From Salicibibacter cibi (GTDB lineage Bacteria; Bacillota; Bacilli; Bacillales; Marinococcaceae): a DNA stretch of 64,000 nucleotides. Position numbers and translations under genes: made by a program. Positions 6,454 to 54,968 of the stretch are shown here, one piece after another; positions within the stretch are counted from its first letter, which is position 1; the number at the start of each line of letters is the position of its first letter. The notes below the pieces were generated by a model, which was not told the origin of the DNA, did no database searches, and worked only from the letters and a program-made list of their open reading frames with translations. Location of the stretch: positions 3,596,001 to 3,660,000 of the forward strand of contig NZ_CP054706.1 in NCBI RefSeq assembly GCF_016495865.1. Reading direction: 5' to 3'.

Positions 6454-6547
6454 CATTAGAAAACTTGGCTTTTCGCCAAGCTTTTATGGCGAGATCCTTC
6501 GCCCAACTTATGCAGGTAATAACGTTGATTTACACTTTCTTACCTGC
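6454..6547. repeat. Dispersed three-hairpin repeat B, uninterrupted copy
   Basis: The unit has three consecutive inverted repeats: CTTGGC/GCCAAG (6464-6480), GGCGAG/TTCGCC (6488-6503), and GCAGGTAA/TTACCTGC (6512-6547, 20-base loop). A second copy at 40825 is split by an IS110 element. In that copy the first stem reads CTTTGC/GCAAAG, a compensated change. It sits between the luxR-type gene terminator and hyuA, so it may lie in the hyuA leader. Confidence 0.8.
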
Positions 6548-28079: not shown

Positions 28080-29314
28080 TCATTGCAGCGGCAGTTTAAA
28101 ATAAAAGCGGCTTCCAACGCCGAGTTCACTTTGCACGCCGATCGCCCCGTTATGCTGCTCAATGATTTCTTTGCAAATCGCCAATCCGATACCGAATCCA
28201 TTTGACGATGTACTTTGATAAAATCTGTCAAAGATGAAAGGTATCATGTCTTCTTCTATACCATCACCCGAATCAATAATGCTAATCACCGCATTTGCCT
28301 TCTCCTTTTCTAATTTAACGGTGATCGCTCCATTTTTCGGGGTATGTTTTCGGGCATTGGAAAGGATATTGGAAAACACTTGCTCCATTCTGATCGTGTC
28401 TATCTGCGCCACAGCATACTCATCATTCAACGCGTCGTTATAAATGAATGTCCGCCCGCTTTTGCTTATTTCCGGTTCATATTCTTCGTATAAATGCTGC
28501 AAAAAAAGACAAATATTTTCATCTTGAAAAATAAATGAAAGCTGTCGATTTTCCAATTTGCTCAAATCGTGAAGATCCCCGATAAAGTGGTCAAGCAACA
28601 GGGTTTTATCATAAACGAGTTGCATGTATTTATCGTCTCCGCGCGGAAAAACTCCATCCAGCATCCCTTTGACATAACCTCGGATAGAGGTTAGCGGCGT
28701 GCCAAGCTCATGAGAAATATTCATCAGCAGCTGGCTCCGTAGTGTTTGCATATGGTTAAGATCTTCATTTTTCTCCCGGAGTTCCCGCGTTCGACTTTTC
28801 ACCTTCTCATCCAAATTGGTATTCAACAAGCGTAATTGCCCGGACAGATCTTCAATCCGTGTATAAGACTCTGCAAACAACACCGACAAATGAAGGGCTT
28901 GCATAAAGATATAAAAAAACATTCCATAGTAAAGAAGAGGCTGCCCGGAAACGACCTGATTATAAAAAAGGATATCGAACATCAAAGCAACGGAAAGGAC
29001 CGAAAAACCCAAAATATGGAATGCAGCTCCGCGTCTACGGTTGATAACCGCGCTGATAAACACATAAATGAGGTAAAAAAACGAAGTAATAATCACAAAC
29101 TGGAAAAAAAGCATCGTATATGAAAAAATATGCGGATGTGTGAGCCCAACAAACATACCATAACCGCTACAGAATAAGAGGATAGCCCAACATGCCCACC
29201 TGTTCATCTCTTGCGGATATAAAGTGCGAACGAACAGAGCGAAGCTCCCCCAGGCCATCAATTGGGCCAGATACTCCAGTTTATATCCGAGCATCCAGCT
29301 CCAATACGGCTTTT
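28080..29314 (-). pseudogene. 7TM-DISM sensor histidine kinase, C-terminal fragment
   Basis: This part encodes most of a membrane domain of the 7TM-DISM kind (KLEYLAQLMAWGSFALF onward), a coiled coil (TRELREKNEDLNHMQTL), the HisKA phosphorylation site NISHELGTPLTSIRGY, and a HATPase_c domain with SNARKHTP, IDSGDGIEED, and GFGIGLAICKEIIEQHNG. It has lost its N-terminal sensor part to the IS110 insertion at 29315-30921. Joining the two sides with one TTT core restores one frame. If translated from an internal start, the fragment could still yield a soluble-core kinase, but sensing would be lost. Confidence 0.85.
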
Positions 29315-29414
29315 TGTATGAAAACCATTTTGGGCTATAAGGCAATAAGAAACTAGGCCCTAAAAATTCATTTTGTAGGACTAAAACGTAAATATCTTAT
29401 TCGATAAGATCTAT

Positions 29415-30647
29415 TTAAGCTGTTTCTGGATCAGAATTCGAGATCGTGTAGCCTTTCTTTTTGAGATATTCGATCATTTTGCGTTCTTTGTTTTGTTGCT
29501 TTTGGTGAACGTATTCGGGGCCTAGTTCCTGGTACGGTTCACCCGTTTTTAAGATGTTGTACGCAATGGTTACGATTAAATGGGCGGAAGCGAATTGGGC
29601 TTTTTTCTTGCCTTGCCGTTTCATAATTCTTTTCTGGTGTGCGGAGATTCGGTTGTTTTGCCTTGCCGTAGATAGGGCACACTCTACCGCCATGGTCTGT
29701 AATGCCTTGTTCCCTTTTGTGGTTTTACTCCCTTTTTTTTTACCAGCACTTTCGTTGTTTCCGGGACTCAATCCGGCCCATGAAGCAAGGTGCTTGGACG
29801 ATTTGAATACGGACATATCAACGCCCATTTCTGCGATGAAAACGGCTGCGCCCACTTGGTTTACACCAGGGATGGTGTCTAAAAGGTCGACTTCCTTTCG
29901 ATAAGGCGCTAAGCATTGGTCGATTTGCTCTTCTAAGTCTTGGATCATTTTCTCAATATACAGCATATGATCCCAGTGATATTGCAACATATCACGGTGA
30001 TGACGGCGTATCCGACCATTGATGGCTTCGGCATTGTCAGCGAGGCTAGCTTTTGTGCGCCAATGAACTATTTCTTTGAGATCCTTTATTTCGATCTTTT
30101 CGCCATTCATGATCGCTTCAAGGATCCGGCGTCCAGATAGACCAAAGATATCGGAGAGAACCGAGGTCAACTTGATGTTGGCATCTTGAAGGATTTTGTG
30201 GATGCGGTTCTGCTCGGCTGTACGCTGGTGAGTCATCTTTTTTCGATAACGTGTCAAGTCTCGCACGTCGCGAATATCCTCCGGTGGAACAAAATTGCTT
30301 TCGATCAAGCCACTCCTCAAGAGTTTGGCTAACCATTCCGCATCTTTGACATCGGTTTTGCGACCGGGGACATTTTTGACATGGTTAGCGTTGGCAAGGA
30401 TAAGCTGAAAATCACTTTCTAAAATGTTCCATACAGGCTTCCAGTAAACGCCGGTGCTTTCCATGACAAGGTCTGTGATGTTCAATGATGCGAGCCAATC
30501 ATTTAATTCCAACAACCCTGATGTTGTGGTTGAAAATGATTGAATGGATGTCTCCGGTTTTTTGTCTAGTGGACCAAATAAAGCACAAGCGACAACAGTT
30601 TCTTGGTGTACATCTAGGCCTGCACACCTTTCAATCATAGCTTCCAT
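29415..30647 (-). CDS. IS110-family transposase (DEDD recombinase)
   Basis: A 410-residue intact transposase. The N-terminal RuvC-like DEDD domain begins CAGLDVHQETVVACAL (first Asp) and has DLVMESTGVYWKP (Glu) and RKTDVKDAEWLAKLL (Asp, Asp). The C-terminal Tnp domain has DTIPGVNQVGAAVFIAEMG, SWAGLSPGNNESAGK with the candidate catalytic Ser, and KGNKALQTMAVECA. All essential residues appear present, so this copy may be active. Confidence 0.93.
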   Translation of the reverse strand: MEAMIERCAGLDVHQETVVACALFGPLDKKPETSIQSFSTTTSGLLELNDWLASLNITDLVMESTGVYWKPVWNILESDFQLILANANHVKNVPGRKTDVKDAEWLAKLLRSGLIESNFVPPEDIRDVRDLTRYRKKMTHQRTAEQNRIHKILQDANIKLTSVLSDIFGLSGRRILEAIMNGEKIEIKDLKEIVHWRTKASLADNAEAINGRIRRHHRDMLQYHWDHMLYIEKMIQDLEEQIDQCLAPYRKEVDLLDTIPGVNQVGAAVFIAEMGVDMSVFKSSKHLASWAGLSPGNNESAGKKKGSKTTKGNKALQTMAVECALSTARQNNRISAHQKRIMKRQGKKKAQFASAHLIVTIAYNILKTGEPYQELGPEYVHQKQQNKERKMIEYLKKKGYTISNSDPETA

Positions 30648-30659
30648 GGGAAATCACCT

Positions 30660-30921
30660 CATGCATGAATGAACAATACAAATGGCAGTCGATCGGTTTC
30701 AAAATTTTTGTATACGTGCTCTCTCGGCACAATAGATGGTTCTTTCATACTGCCACAACCAGTTTCTAATCCAGGGTATCCTTTTCAAGATCCACCAAAA
30801 AGCATTCAGTCTGGTTGTATTGTTAGTAAAGATATTGCCAATCCATGAAGGGGACATACGCCCATTTTGAGAAGAATCCATTTTCATGCTAGATGGTGGC
30901 TACGGGAACGTAGCCACATTG
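30660..30921 (-). ncRNA. Candidate IS110 bridge RNA region, copy 1
   Basis: The non-coding left end of the element holds, from the tip inward, a 9-bp hairpin (GTGGCTACG/CGTAGCCAC), a segment variable between the two copies (30854-30880), and long conserved stretches (GAATGCTTTTTGGTGGATC). Position relative to the transposase agrees with bridge RNAs described for IS621. The exact RNA ends are not known, and no structure prediction was run. Confidence 0.45.
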
Positions 30922-31704
30922 TTTCTAAAGAAGAAAACTTGTCCCCTTGCAAAAAAGTTTGCAGCGCGACTGCAATGCACAATATGCCAAAGTAGAGTGG
31001 GGAACGGTTTTTTCGCCGAAATAGATAAAAACAAATGAAAACGAGCCCCATTGTGATTAAGCTTCCCACGAAAAACGTCGTCTCCGTGACATTGTCTTCC
31101 CGATAAGCCGATATATCTTCTTCAGTTCCGATCATAATCGGACCCCATATTCCCCCGGCACGTTGTGTGAAATTAGAGACTTGAAGAATAATCTCAAGCT
31201 GATCACTGTCGGTTTGAAATGGTAATGCCTGGCTGTATTCATCCGGCTCCATATCTGAACGATCCACTCCGACGACACCTTGCTCATGCAATAATTCATC
31301 ATTCACCCAGGTCCTGTGGGCACTATAAACCCTCGGAATGTAAAGAGACATAAGCTCGTTTTGGTCGTCTTCATGCAAGTCAACGGTCAACCGATACGTG
31401 GCATACCCTTCATGGGGAAGATTATCTTCGTTCATGGATGACTGATACCAGGCGTGGGGAACATCCAGATAATAAGGAAGGGGGGACGTTCGCCGCCAGC
31501 AAAATCTCCGGGCTCCAGTAATTGCTCCCAATAAAATTCCCATTCACCGTCAAGATTGGTAAGACCATTTTGCTGAAAATTCCACTGGTCAAATGAAAGA
31601 TGACCTTGTTTAGCGATCGGAGGTGACTTCCCTTCGGACATCTCCACGCTGAGGACAAACATAACAGCAATATGGGTGAACATGAATAGCAGTTTCCCGT
31701 TCAT
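30922..31704 (-). pseudogene. 7TM-DISM sensor histidine kinase, N-terminal fragment (frameshifted)
   Basis: The ATG at 31704 begins a signal/anchor sequence, then an extracellular 7TMR-DISM-like domain (GLTNLDGEWEFYWEQLLEPG). The frame breaks at six G residues (31480-31485, plus strand); seven would join ...GGERPP to LPYYLDVPHAW. The second part continues with YRLTVDLHEDDQNELMSLYI and membrane helices (FFVGSLITMGLVFICFYLF) up to the IS110 insertion. So the gene has two independent lesions. Together with 28080-29314 the intact protein would have about 670 residues. Confidence 0.82.
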
Positions 31705-36538: not shown

Positions 36539-38014
36539 CTAACCATTAGAAGGAGATCCACCCTCTGATGGAAGTTTCACTTTATGTGTTACCATGCTTG
36601 CAAGGACATAACCAATCAATGAGAGTACCACGGGAACAACGACAGAATGCATCCCGAATGGTCCCATTTGGCCAAGGGGTTCTCCGATGAAAAGATAGAT
36701 GGCAATGTAAGAACCGATGCCGAGAATCATCGAAGCCAACGCACCATAACGGTTGCCTTTTGCCCAATACAAACCCAACACAAGCGGCCAAACGAAAGCA
36801 GCCTCCAAACCGCCAAACGCAAACAAATTTAACGTAATTAAAAATTCCGGGGGACTGAGGGCAAAAAGAACGACCGTTATTCCCAAAAATGCAGTCACTC
36901 CGATGCTAACTTTCCTGATTTTTTTTGCGGTAGCGTTTGGATTAATGTAATTATAATACACATCTTTCACGACAGCGGAACTAACCATCAAAAGTAGGGC
37001 ATCAACAGTAGACATGATCGCAGCCAACGGCGCGGCCAGAACAATGCCTGCCAACCACGCGGGCAGAACGGTCATCGCCAATGTGGGCATAACGTTATCG
37101 GCAACCTCGATCCCCGGGATAATCGGTCTAGCCAGCGTACCGGCCAAGTGCATGCCGAACATCATGAACGCAACGACAATTGTTCCAATAATCAAGGCCC
37201 GATGCATGGAGCGTGAATCTTTGTAGGACATGGCACGAACAGCTACTTGCGGCAAGCCGACAACACCGACACCGACAAGAATCCAAAAGGAAGAGACGTA
37301 AAGGGGCGTCAAGTTACCCTCAGCACCGAACGGAGAAATCAGGCGCTCGTTTTCAGCGGCAAGATCACCCATGATGTTGCCCATCCCACCGCCGGCAATA
37401 ATCGTGGCCACAAGCAGCACGAGCGTTCCGAAAAACATGATCACTCCCTGCACGGCATCCGTAACCGCAATTGCCCGAAACCCACCGATAATAACATAAA
37501 TAAGAACTGCAACGGCAAAAATAAACAGGGCCGATGGATAGGTCAATCCGGTAACGACTTCTATGAGCCGCGCACCGCCCACCCATTGGGCAGCCATCGC
37601 TGAAAAGATAAAGACAATAATGCTCCCGGCGCTTATGAGCACAACGAGTGTACTATTATATCTTTTTTTGAAATAGTCAACCAAAGTGACGGCATCGTAT
37701 TTACGAGCCATGATTGCAAATTTTTTCCCCAAAATCATGAGGACGAAATAACCGGTCGCCACTTGGGACATGGAAAGAAGTACCCATCCGAGCCCTTCAT
37801 GATAAGCGGCGCCGGGCCCACCGATAAAACTGCTCGCACTTCCATATGTAGCAATCATCGTCATCGCTAAAATCAAGCCGCCGAGCTCACGACTGCCAAG
37901 AAAATATTCCTGCATAAAATTGCTTTTGTTAAAAACGTGTTTGGAAGCCCAAAAACCGATCAGGAAAACAACAGCAATGAAAAAGAGCAGCGGTACGATA
38001 ACTTCCCAATTCAT
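36539..38014 (-). CDS. panF: Sodium/pantothenate symporter
   Basis: A 491-residue sodium:solute symporter with about 13 helices. It shows YFLGSRELGGLILAMTMIAT, YGSASSFIGGPGAAY, and GGFRAIAVTDAVQG. The start overlaps the stop of the small yhdT-type gene by one base, the same pairing as yhdT-panF in enterobacteria, which supports pantothenate as substrate. The last 14 codons coincide with a 27-base sequence found again in the ywzB and glyA leaders. Confidence 0.87.
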   Translation of the reverse strand: MNWEVIVPLLFFIAVVFLIGFWASKHVFNKSNFMQEYFLGSRELGGLILAMTMIATYGSASSFIGGPGAAYHEGLGWVLLSMSQVATGYFVLMILGKKFAIMARKYDAVTLVDYFKKRYNSTLVVLISAGSIIVFIFSAMAAQWVGGARLIEVVTGLTYPSALFIFAVAVLIYVIIGGFRAIAVTDAVQGVIMFFGTLVLLVATIIAGGGMGNIMGDLAAENERLISPFGAEGNLTPLYVSSFWILVGVGVVGLPQVAVRAMSYKDSRSMHRALIIGTIVVAFMMFGMHLAGTLARPIIPGIEVADNVMPTLAMTVLPAWLAGIVLAAPLAAIMSTVDALLLMVSSAVVKDVYYNYINPNATAKKIRKVSIGVTAFLGITVVLFALSPPEFLITLNLFAFGGLEAAFVWPLVLGLYWAKGNRYGALASMILGIGSYIAIYLFIGEPLGQMGPFGMHSVVVPVVLSLIGYVLASMVTHKVKLPSEGGSPSNG

Positions 38015-40562: not shown

Positions 40563-40590
40563 CCCACCCTCTGATGGAAGTCTCACTTTA
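40563..40590 (-). repeat. 27-base recurrent leader motif E (copy upstream of ywzB)
   Basis: On the minus strand TAAAGTGAGACTTCCATCAG then AGGGTGGG. The same 27 bases occur with two or three changes at 54892-54919 (glyA leader) and 36558-36584 (panF 3' end). Confidence 0.65.
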
Positions 40591-40737
40591 CTTGTACAGC
40601 AATAAAATTATACCAAAAGAAATATGCGTTGTCGACTACGCCTTCAAGCTATTTGTTACAAATCTGTATCCATCTGAATGTATTCGAAAGGTTTGTTTTT
40701 ATGCAGGTATGCGAAAAATGGAATTCACTTTGAGGAA

Positions 40738-40824: not shown

Positions 40825-40909
40825 CATTAGAAAACTTTGCTTTTCGCAAAGCTTTGATGGCGAAATCCTTCGCCCAACTTATGCAGGTAATAAAGGTGAT
40901 TTATACTTT
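40825..40909. repeat. Repeat B, left part of the copy split by IS110
   Basis: Hairpins CTTTGC/GCAAAG (40835-40851) and GGCGAA/TTCGCC (40859-40874), then GCAGGTAA (40883-40890), whose partner TTACCTGC is at 42544-42551 on the other side of the IS110 copy 2. Confidence 0.85.
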
Positions 40910-42539
40910 TGTATGAAAACCATTTTGACTAGATGGCAATAGGAAACTAGGCCCTAAAAATTGATTTTGTAGGACTAAAACGTAAATATCTTATTCGGTA
41001 AGATCTATTTAAGCTGTTTCTGGGTCAGCACTTGAAACGGTATATCCTTTCTTTTTGAGGTGTTCGATCATTTTAAGCTCTTTATTTTCTTGCCTTTGAT
41101 GAACGTACTCAGGGCCTAGTTCCTGATACGGTTCACCGGTTTTTAAGTTACGGTTCACCGGTTTTTAAGATGTTATACGCGATGGTTACGATTAGATGAG
41201 CGGAAGCGAAATGGGCTTTTTTCTTGCCTTGCCGTTTCATAATTCTTTTCTGGTGTGCAGAAATTCGATTGGTTTGCCTTGCTGTAGTCAGAGCACATTG
41301 TACCGCCATGGTCTGTAATGCCTTGTTCCCTTTTGTGGTTTTACTTCCTTTTTTTTACCAGCACTTTCGTTGTTTCCAGGACTTAATCCAGCCCAGGAAG
41401 CGAGGTGCTTGGAAGACTTAAATACAGACATGTCCACGCCCATTTCAGCGATGAAAGTAGCCGCGCCTGATTGATCTACACCTGGAATTGTGTCCAAAAG
41501 GTCGACTTCCTTGCGATAAGGCGCTAAGCTTTGGTCGATTTGTTCCTCTAAGTTTTGGATCATTCCCTCAATATACAGCATATGATCCCAGTGATACTGC
41601 AGCATATCACGATGATGACGGCGCACCCGTCCATTGATCGCTTTGGCAATGTCATCGAGACTAGCTTTCGTTCGCCAGTGGACCATTTCCTGAAGATTCT
41701 TCTTCTCGATCTTCTCACCATTGATGATCGCTTCGAGGATCCGGCGTCCAGATAAACCAAAGATATTGGACAGAACCGACGTCAGCTTGATATTGGCATC
41801 TTGAAGGATTTTGTGGATGCGATTTTGCTCAGCTGTGCGCTGATGCGTCAGTTTCTTTCGATAACGCGTCAGGTCGCGTAAATCGCGAATATCCTCGGGG
41901 GGAACAAAATTGCTTTCGATCAATCCACTTCTCAATAGTTTGGCTAACCATTCGGCATCTTTGACATCGGTTTTACGACCAGGAACATTTTTAACATGGT
42001 TAGCGTTAGCAAGAATAAGCTGAAAATCACTTTCTAAAATGTTCCATACAGGTTTCCAGTAGACACCGGTACTTTCCATGACAAGATCTGTGACCTTCAG
42101 GGATGTGAGCCAATCATTCAATTCCAACAATCCTGGTGTAGTGGTTGAAAATGATTGGATGGACTTCTCCGGCTTTTTGTCTAATGGTCCAAATAAAGCA
42201 CAAGCGACAATGGTTTCCTGGTGTACATCTAGGCCTGCACACCTTTCAATCATAGCTTCCATGGGAAAAACCACCTTCCTACGTAATTGAACAATACAAA
42301 TGACAGTCGTTCGGTTTCAAAATTTTTGTATACGTGCTAGCAGCACAATAGATGGTTCTTTCATACTGTCACAACCAGTTTCTTACACAGGGTATCTTTT
42401 TCAAGATCCACCAAAAAGCATTCAGCCTGGCTGTATTGTTAGTCAAGATATTGCCAATTCATAAAGATGGCATACTCCCATTTTGAGCTAACAACCATTT
42501 TCATTGTAGATGGTGGCTACGAGGAGCGTAGCCACATTG
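40910..42539 (-). mobile_element. IS110-family insertion sequence, copy 2 (decayed)
   Basis: A 1630-base copy, colinear with copy 1. Both ends match copy 1 (TGTATGAAAACC at the left; CCACATTG at the right). It has inserted at TTT in the 20-base loop of the third hairpin of repeat B. It carries a 20-base direct duplication (ACGGTTCACCGGTTTTTAAG, around 41130-41168) and a one-base deletion, both in the transposase gene. Confidence 0.88.
41009..42262 (-). pseudogene. IS110-family transposase pseudogene
   Basis: The first 300 codons are well conserved with copy 1 (start MEAMIERCAGLDVHQETIV). In the run of A residues after NNESAG the copy has eight where copy 1 has nine, shifting the frame to a stop near 41288. 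Further on, a 20-base duplication shifts it again. The C-terminal domain after the catalytic Ser motif is thus lost, so this copy cannot supply its own transposase but may be mobilised by copy 1. Confidence 0.85.
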
Positions 42540-42551
42540 TTTCTTACCTGC
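42540..42551. repeat. Repeat B, right part of the copy split by IS110
   Basis: TTT core and TTACCTGC, the complement of GCAGGTAA at 40883. The uninterrupted copy at 6512-6547 has both arms joined by a 20-base loop. Confidence 0.8.
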
Positions 42552-52312: not shown

Positions 52313-52624
52313 TTATGACGACCGAAGTGCTCGGCTTCGTTCGAGCTCGGTCACCATGGGCTGCTCATGGCGACCGTAATGCCCCGCTTCGCTCTAGTTC
52401 GGGTGCCATGGCCGCTTCATGGCGACCGAAATACCCAACTTCGCTCGAGTTCGGTCGCCATGACCGCTTCATAGTGACCGTAATGCCCGGCTTTGTTCTA
52501 ATTCGGGCACCATGACCGCTTCATGACGACTGAAAAGAGGCATTCCAGTTTAGTTCGGGCTCCATGGCCGCTTCATGGCGACCGTTACCCCCTGCTTCGC
52601 TCGAGTTCGGTCGCCATGACCGAC
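52313..52624. repeat. Array of six 52-bp palindromic units (family A)
   Basis: Six consecutive 52-base units start at 52313, 52365, 52417, 52469, 52521 and 52573. Each begins TCATGGCGACCG (or close) and ends CGGTCGCCATGACCGCT, so the ends of each unit are complementary and can form a hairpin. The unit ends are better conserved than the middles. Same type units are scattered at 1440, 7380, 23425, 35152 and 57240. The rest of the gap 52158-52312 is purine-rich and without gene. Confidence 0.85.
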
Positions 52625-54891: not shown

Positions 54892-54919
54892 CCCACCCTT
54901 TGATGGAAGTTTCACTTTA
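54892..54919 (-). repeat. 27-base recurrent leader motif E (copy upstream of glyA)
   Basis: On the minus strand TAAAGTGAAACTTCCATCAA then AGGGTGGG, directly after GTTAAAAT, which could be a -10 element. Related to 40563-40590. A degenerate version lies before ywlE near 56462-56494. Confidence 0.6.
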
Positions 54920-54968
54920 TTTTAACACGGAAAAGACCTTGTGGGCAGATAAGTTTTCTATTCGAATT

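What the first reader, a model, noticed from the sequence alone, without database searches (positions are those of the whole stretch)
40825..42551. IS110 element inserted in the loop of a dispersed hairpin repeat, with an empty copy of the same site present
Repeat B at 6454-6547 is continuous: GCAGGTAA, 20-base loop with ACTTTC, TTACCTGC. In the copy at 40825 the arms are separated by IS110 copy 2, which entered at TTT within that loop. This gives the element ends to within the three T residues and shows that a palindromic repeat served as target. IS110-family elements targeting REP-like repeats are known in other bacteria; this pairing with an empty paralogous site is seen directly here.
Basis: partly seen in the sequence, partly recalled or inferred. 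Interest (0 to 1): 0.72.

Follow-up and report, generated by a model that had tools for sequence, protein, structure and literature searches.

The report
RNA-guided IS110 elements colonising hairpin repeats
A jumping DNA element that appears to find its landing site with its own guide RNA sits inside one of about a hundred copies of a hairpin-shaped repeat in this bacterium, and tiny stripped-down derivatives of it sit at the same spot in many repeats of a related species.

Summary
An IS110 element (window 40910-42542) splits a copy of a dispersed hairpin repeat; the copy at 6454-6547 is empty, and a repeat-core pattern hits this genome 105 times. One correction: in most copies the insertion point is in the 3' arm of a long stem, not in its loop.

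Upstream of the transposase lies a bridge-type guide RNA (42290-42440, minus strand). Both target guides match the flanks and covary with them across relatives: left guide, 38 of 5040 relabellings as good; right guide, 2 of 5040.

The site is reused. In the home genome 6 of 11 related ends sit exactly there. In another genus, 19 of 20 places found with a ~135-nt transposase-less derivative sit at the same arm site, 4 of them in the opposite arm.

IS110 insertion into REP-like repeats is known. Two things I did not find in print in the searches listed: IS110-family MITEs, and guides in reverse order to IS621 although the RNA lies upstream. The window copy's transposase is frameshifted and probably dead; a 98% sibling is intact. 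Movement of the derivatives in trans is inferred, not shown.

The parts
6454..6547 (+). Empty copy of repeat B
40825..40909 (+). Left part of the interrupted copy of repeat B, up to the insertion point in the 3' arm
42543..42551 (+). Right remainder of the interrupted repeat (CTTACCTGC)
40910..42542 (-). IS110 element, transposase sense on the minus strand; ends uncertain within the T runs 40907-40909 and 42540-42542
41288..42274 (-). Transposase frame, 328 aa, shortened by a lost A and a 22-nt duplication; 414 aa in the copy at genome position 1955458
42513..42535 (-). Left-end hairpin GTGGCTAC...GTAGCCAC, also present in the MITEs
42290..42440 (-). Bridge-type guide RNA, from AACAATAC to GTATTGTT (terminal stem)
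42413..42423 (-). Right target guide GAATGCTTTTT, 5' side of the target loop
42379..42387 (-). Left target guide TGTAAGAAA, 3' side of the target loop
42324..42333 (-). Left donor guide GTATACAAAA, like the right end CATACAAAA; 3' side of the donor loop
42345..42356 (-). Possible right donor guide (tentative, not tested)
   Evidence: inspection only
29314..30924 (-). Second copy of the element, 86% alike, outside repeats, with a different left guide

Best explanation
The element is an IS110-family, bridge-RNA-guided transposon whose target guides nearly spell the arm of a REP-like hairpin repeat. A circular form would be inserted by the recombinase where the target loop pairs with GTAAG-AAA on one strand and with AAA-GTAT on the other. 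That sequence lies in both arms of many copies of the repeat, so repeat arms make up most of its matching sites. Short derivatives (~135 nt, only the left-end hairpin region and the right end) would be moved in trans by a full element and land at the same site. Shown here: the anatomy, covariation of guides and flanks, and repeated use of the site in either arm. Inferred: circular intermediate, expression of the RNA, and mobilisation in trans.
For: Left guide and left flank agree at 4-6 of 6 bases in 17 of 17 elements, 38 of 5040 relabellings as good. Right guide and right flank: 13 elements, 6.5 of 7 against 4.9, 2 of 5040 as good; a control segment gives 48 of 120. RNA helices are 99.0% paired against 28-45% when slid, and helix P4 is replaced and still pairs in distant relatives. 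The repeat arm fits the home left guide at 8 of 9 bases and the right guide at AAAG, one wobble, AT. At least 70 of the first 100 listed GTAAGAAAG sites lie in repeat arms. Site reuse: 6 of 11 ends at home, 19 of 20 places in G017, 4 of them in the opposite arm with the same polarity. Mini-elements with short ISEc21 ends move when transposase and RNA are supplied apart from them (PMC11187229, passages).
Against: The right guide of the home copies fits the repeat with a wobble and stops after GTAT; the exact fit is only in a relic in G007. Much of the left-guide match is a shared TAAG ending. Of the three full home copies only one is in a standard repeat. G017, with the most MITEs, has no guide RNA of this class and none of its transposase fragments carries these ends. 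Most base pairs of the RNA never vary in the close set (22 of 32). No expression or movement was tested.
Confidence: 0.85

Rival explanations
1. The hairpin shape itself (cruciform or single strand) is the target, as for REP-associated Y1 transposases, and the sequence match is secondary.
For: The hairpin is kept by compensating arm changes. A Paenibacillus faecis relative also has a 9-10 bp hairpin ending at its left junction in 6 of 8 loci.
Against: The copies at 29314 and the MITEs at 1929127 and G017 C23:146207 lie outside the repeat. Relatives insert in other sequences that follow their guides. 2 of 8 P. faecis loci gave no stem.
Confidence: 0.06
2. The MITEs did not insert into the repeats one by one; a repeat already carrying a MITE was copied as a unit.
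For: In G017, C29:42017 and C16:141183 share their outer flank, and several copies share the same variant of the repeat.
Against: Two left-end subtypes both occur in both arms, full elements and MITEs in four genomes use the same base, and most outer flanks in G017 differ. So at least several separate insertions are needed, though not 19.
Confidence: 0.15
3. The short elements are only independent internal deletions of full IS110 copies, not a mobile MITE family.
For: Some places are one-ended: 3737024 and 2990849 (left end only), 3247437 (right end only).
Against: 14 of 20 places in G017 have both ends, and the same internal hairpin is found in the home genome at 88-91% identity. Independent deletions would not share one interior.
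Confidence: 0.07

Closest known systems
IS621 and its bridge RNA (IS110 group, E. coli)
   Same: Recombinase with the same two domains (best solved relative, 5.9e-15); RNA upstream of the gene with a target and a donor loop; REP elements as targets (PMC11208160 passages).
   Different: IS621 has stem, left guide, stem-loop, right guide in each loop (PMC11208158 passages); here the right target guide comes first and the left target and left donor guides come last. IS621 uses a CT core; here the junction lies in an A run and the core is not fixed. 414 against about 328 aa.
IS1111-type elements and their seekRNA
   Same: Top-strand match 5' of the bottom-strand match (PMC11187229 passages), as here.
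   Different: IS1111 RNA lies downstream of the gene and transposases are 330-350 aa (passages); here the RNA is upstream and the protein 410-414 aa.
REP-targeting ISs (ISPsy8, ISPa11, ISPpu9, ISPpu10, ISRm22, ISRm19)
   Same: Specific insertion into dispersed palindromes (PMC1525189 abstract).
   Different: Other hosts and repeats; here both guides are read and compared, and MITEs use the same site.
Bacterial MITEs (MITEPsy1, MITEPye1 and others)
   Same: Short, without transposase gene, share ends with an IS, thought to move in trans (PMC3189936, PMC11578231 passages).
   Different: Those are linked to IS5-like or IS1182 elements with terminal inverted repeats; here the ends are IS110 ends and the site is one that a guide RNA would choose.

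Membership tests
IS110 family | DEDD N-terminal domain (PF01548) and C-terminal domain PF02371 | tested here: met
   NCBIfam NF033542 at 274.9 bits, cut-off 140
IS110 family | Bridge RNA in the longer non-coding left end (IS110 group) | tested here: met
   expression not tested
IS110 family | Target guides complementary to the two sides of the target | tested here: met
IS110 family | Insertion without target duplication | tested here: inconclusive
   The junction lies in an A run of varying length
IS621-like bridge RNA | Left guide 5' and right guide 3' in each loop | tested here: not met
   Right target guide 5', left target guide 3'; donor loop: only the left donor guide is placed, 3'
IS1111 group | RNA in the right end, downstream of the gene | tested here: not met
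   RNA is upstream
IS1111 group | Subterminal inverted repeats of 7-17 bp | tested here: inconclusive
   ATGAAAA near the left end and TTTTCAT at the right end (7 bp), read by eye
MITE | Short, multicopy, no transposase, both ends shared with an IS | tested here: met
MITE | Mobilised in trans by the related IS | not testable with these tools
   G017 has no guide RNA of this class at present
REP sequence | Many dispersed copies of a conserved palindromic unit | tested here: met
REP sequence | Associated Y1 (RAYT) transposase | not tested
   no search was made

The most novel reading that the evidence does not exclude
A branch of the IS110 family in Bacillales-type bacteria has bridge RNAs that read DNA in the order opposite to IS621 although the RNA sits in the left end. 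Its guides are tuned to the arms of dispersed hairpin repeats, and it has spawned RNA-guided MITEs: elements with neither transposase nor guide RNA that still land at one exact base of a palindromic repeat, in either arm.
Probability: 0.6. Interest if true: 0.72.

Novelty: new variant of a known kind. Interest (0 to 1): 0.6.

Why it matters
Bridge-RNA recombinases are being developed as genome-writing tools. A natural branch with reversed guide order, and natural minimal derivatives that keep only about 44 nt of left end and about 20 nt of right end, would show what the machinery tolerates. It also suggests how such a transposon can spread with little harm: its guide spells a multicopy hairpin, and the palindrome offers two equal sites per repeat. 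Empty and filled repeats in one genome make the guide-to-target rule directly testable.

Tried and rejected
Right guide: I first looked on the 3' side of the target loop. The segment TTNTGACAG there does not covary with the flank (48 of 120 relabellings as good); it is a strand of helix P4. GTATTGTT, first taken as the right donor guide, is the 3' strand of the terminal stem. The right donor guide stays tentative.

Rfam: no match near a gathering score in the two loci searched; the best ones fall on a terminator-like hairpin beside the element, and one at E 0.19 (25 bits, cut-off 70) overlaps the repeat's left part.

Plasmid and phage records: one search used wrong coordinates (44 nt of MITE plus flank); repeated with the whole MITE, no match in plasmids or phages. 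The repeat: no match in plasmids. Viral contigs: no exact match to a 22-nt MITE piece.

Second IS110 type (439-445 aa): one G022 copy is inside the repeat hairpin near the same place, two more are beside a repeat, the two home copies are not. Its ends were not worked out.

One search had a one-base offset and was replaced.

Literature (open-licence library only): IS110 + bridge RNA + MITE, 0 papers; IS110 + REP sequences + insertion, 10; IS110 + MITEs, 51, of which 20 were listed, most of those about arachnids; IS110 family + non-autonomous, 3; IS110 + miniature inverted-repeat transposable, 9; bridge RNA + IS110 + in trans, 8; ISCro4 or bridge RNA, 57, of which 30 were listed; IS110 + palindromic + Bacillaceae, 0. 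For MITEs I saw passages of eight papers: PMC3189936, PMC9769881, PMC11578231, PMC3718332, PMC6053426, PMC2680597, PMC3852290, PMC9208149. None of the passages describes an IS110 MITE; MiniMdi3 (PMC2680597) is related to ISMdi3, whose family the passages do not give. PMC4852346, PMC12024412 and PMC10464136 were listed but not opened. One search searched Salicibibacter, my recall-based guess at the organism; nothing in the listing bears on it, and the name is unverified.

Full report
Observation. The window is 3596001-3660000 of a 3,814,380-base single-contig genome. Repeat B at 6454-6547 is continuous; the copy beginning at 40825 stops after ATACTTT at 40909 and continues as CTTACCTGC at 42543. 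Between them lies an IS110 element read on the minus strand. Two more full copies exist: 98% alike at 1955458, and 86% alike in the window at 29314-30924.

The repeat. A 17-nt core pattern (one mismatch allowed) gives 105 hits in the home genome, 99, 17 and 21 in its three congeners, 127 in G017 (another genus), 67 in G010 (mostly a variant) and 11 in G007; the other 22 of 29 genomes have 0-2, and reversed-pattern controls have 0-6. Hairpins were read from 29 of 30 fetched copies; arm changes are partly compensated (position 2 CG to TA in 6 copies, position 5 GC to AT in 2, position 12 AT to CG in 2), while position 9 is often unpaired. The 9-mer GTAAGAAAG occurs 136 times in the home genome (reversed 65). 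Of the 100 places listed, 62 lie in the 13-nt arm motif and 8 more form an arm pair. So repeat arms are most of the sites that fit the left guide.

The element. The recombinase has both IS110 domains, passes NCBIfam's IS110 RNA-guided transposase cut-off, and its two matches among solved structures are IS621 (5.9e-15) and ISCro4 (2e-11). The window copy lacks one A of an A run and has a 22-nt duplication, leaving 328 aa; the copy at 1955458 has 414 aa.

The guide RNA. One search fetched 78 relatives by protein; I aligned the upstream regions of 19 of them with 5 from the home genus. RNAalifold on 10 sequences gives two stem-enclosed internal loops; I added the terminal stem by inspection. Over 13 close sequences the helices are 99.0% paired against 28-45% when slid, but 22 of 32 pairs never vary and only 3 show a change on both sides (38 of 500 shuffles reach 3), and the structure was drawn from these sequences. 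Stronger support is helix P4 in five distant relatives, where the letters change and pairing stays, e.g. Desulfosporosinus TCCAACAACC/GGTTGTTGGG; mean 8.2 bp over all 16 rows, against 4.1-5.1 for crossed strands. Read as antisense the P4 helices average 7.3 bp, so the strand is only weakly settled by P4. The single-sequence fold is unremarkable (z -1.75).

Target guides. The six bases before AAAC in the flank agree with the six before AA(A/G)CTGG in the RNA at 4-6 of 6 positions in 17 of 17 elements. Left out: L099 and L135 (no readable left end) and the distant rows. Over 7 guide classes, 38 of 5040 relabellings do as well. A shared TAAG ending carries much of the match; the informative classes are GATTAG, TAGAGG and TACGAA. 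On the 5' side of the loop the RNA is complementary to the right flank: AAAATTT in Siminovitchia, AAAGAG in Rossellomorea and Bacillus sp. P14.5, AAAAAAGG in one Peribacillus copy, AAAAAGC in the copies at 1955458 and 29314. Thirteen elements in 7 classes score 6.5 of 7 against 4.9, 2 of 5040 as good (shifts of one base allowed for the A run; L077 has only 6 bases of flank; elements without a readable right end were left out). Schinkia (L070) fits only over GTAT. The repeat arm fits the home left guide at 8 of 9 bases and the right guide at AAAG, a wobble, and AT. A relic in G007 has a right guide that fits AAAGTAT exactly.

Order of guides. In IS621 each loop is stem, left guide, stem-loop, right guide (PMC11208158, passages). 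In ISEc21, the IS110-type member studied in PMC11187229, the top-strand match lies 3' of the bottom-strand match; in IS1111 members it is the reverse (passages). Here the right target guide comes first, and the left target and left donor guides come last in their loops. By inspection the same target-loop order fits Paenibacillus faecis and Aquibacillus elements; Sphingobium could not be read. So this branch has IS1111-like order with IS110-like RNA position. In the donor loop only the left guide is placed, so that half is weaker. PMC11208160 shows six further RNA structures in figures that I could not see (section 12 read).

Reuse of the site at home. I tabulated 11 ends or elements of this class. 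Exact arm site: win40915, 3737024, 2990849, 3247437, 3525667, 3013112 (6 of 11). Diverged repeat-like sequence, same point: 1955458. Beside another part of a repeat: 3237757, 911797. Elsewhere: win29314 and 1929127. Pattern hits with no likeness beyond the motif were dropped (2 of 7 and 8 of 15 places). A degenerate relative next to a repeat, shared by G000 and G022 (L253, L252), is not counted.

MITEs. One 136-nt copy used as query finds matches in 5 of 29 genomes. All 20 places listed in G017 were examined: 19 have the left flank of a repeat arm, 17 show more of the repeat on at least one side, 14 have both ends (13 of these at the arm site), and 4 lie in the opposite arm with the same polarity, as a guide reading a palindrome predicts. 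Exceptions: C23:146207 lies outside repeats, C16:140895 runs into N, and C44:345839 has only the left end. Two places share their outer flank, so 19 is not the number of independent insertions. Two left-end subtypes occur, each in both arms. The MITE folds strongly as single-stranded DNA (z -4.0). G022 and G023 each have one full MITE inside a repeat (L176, L175), G022 a partial one (L193), G004 a 73% relative outside repeats (L177). No guide RNA of this class was found in G017, so its MITEs look orphaned, or the parent is missing from the draft.

A second case. A related IS110 in Paenibacillus faecis (58% protein identity) has a 9-10 bp hairpin ending at its left junction in 6 of 8 loci (0 to 15 of 500 shuffles as good; none found in L095 and L110), and its left guide GTTAATC equals that arm.

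Known and new. IS110-family insertion into REP sequences is known (PMC1525189 abstract; PMC11208160 passages), and so is natural reprogramming of guides (PMC11187229 passages). I found no IS110-family MITE in searches, and no statement of reversed order in an upstream-RNA element in the passages read. The library lacks most subscription journals and preprints.

Noticed in passing
window 36558-36589, 40564-40595, 54893-54924: A second dispersed repeat, CCACCCTCTGATGGAAGTYTCACTTTA, three copies 88-100% alike, one of them about 230 bases left of the interrupted repeat B.
   Followed up: no
window 52320-52622: Four overlapping register copies of a repeat with 52-base spacing.
   Followed up: no
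window 29314-30924: The second IS110 copy adjoins the start of a 421-aa frame that looks like a sensor histidine kinase; it may cut off the gene's 5' part.
   Followed up: no
L228 (G022, 2995630 region): A different IS110 type (439-445 aa family) also sits inside the repeat-B hairpin, a few bases from the same point.
   Followed up: partly
L017, L058, L241: Another element or end (GGATTGCTGAACAAC or GGATTGCTGAATAAC) interrupts repeat B or its IS110 remnants.
   Followed up: no
G023: 30 IS110-type transposase matches in one 3.8-Mb genome, many with the same score and a 418-aa frame.
   Followed up: no
L071, L073, L146, L140 (Peribacillus and Bacillus sp.): The right flanks read AAAAAAGCTGCC and alike, followed by hairpin-like sequence; these copies may sit at transcription terminators.
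   Followed up: no
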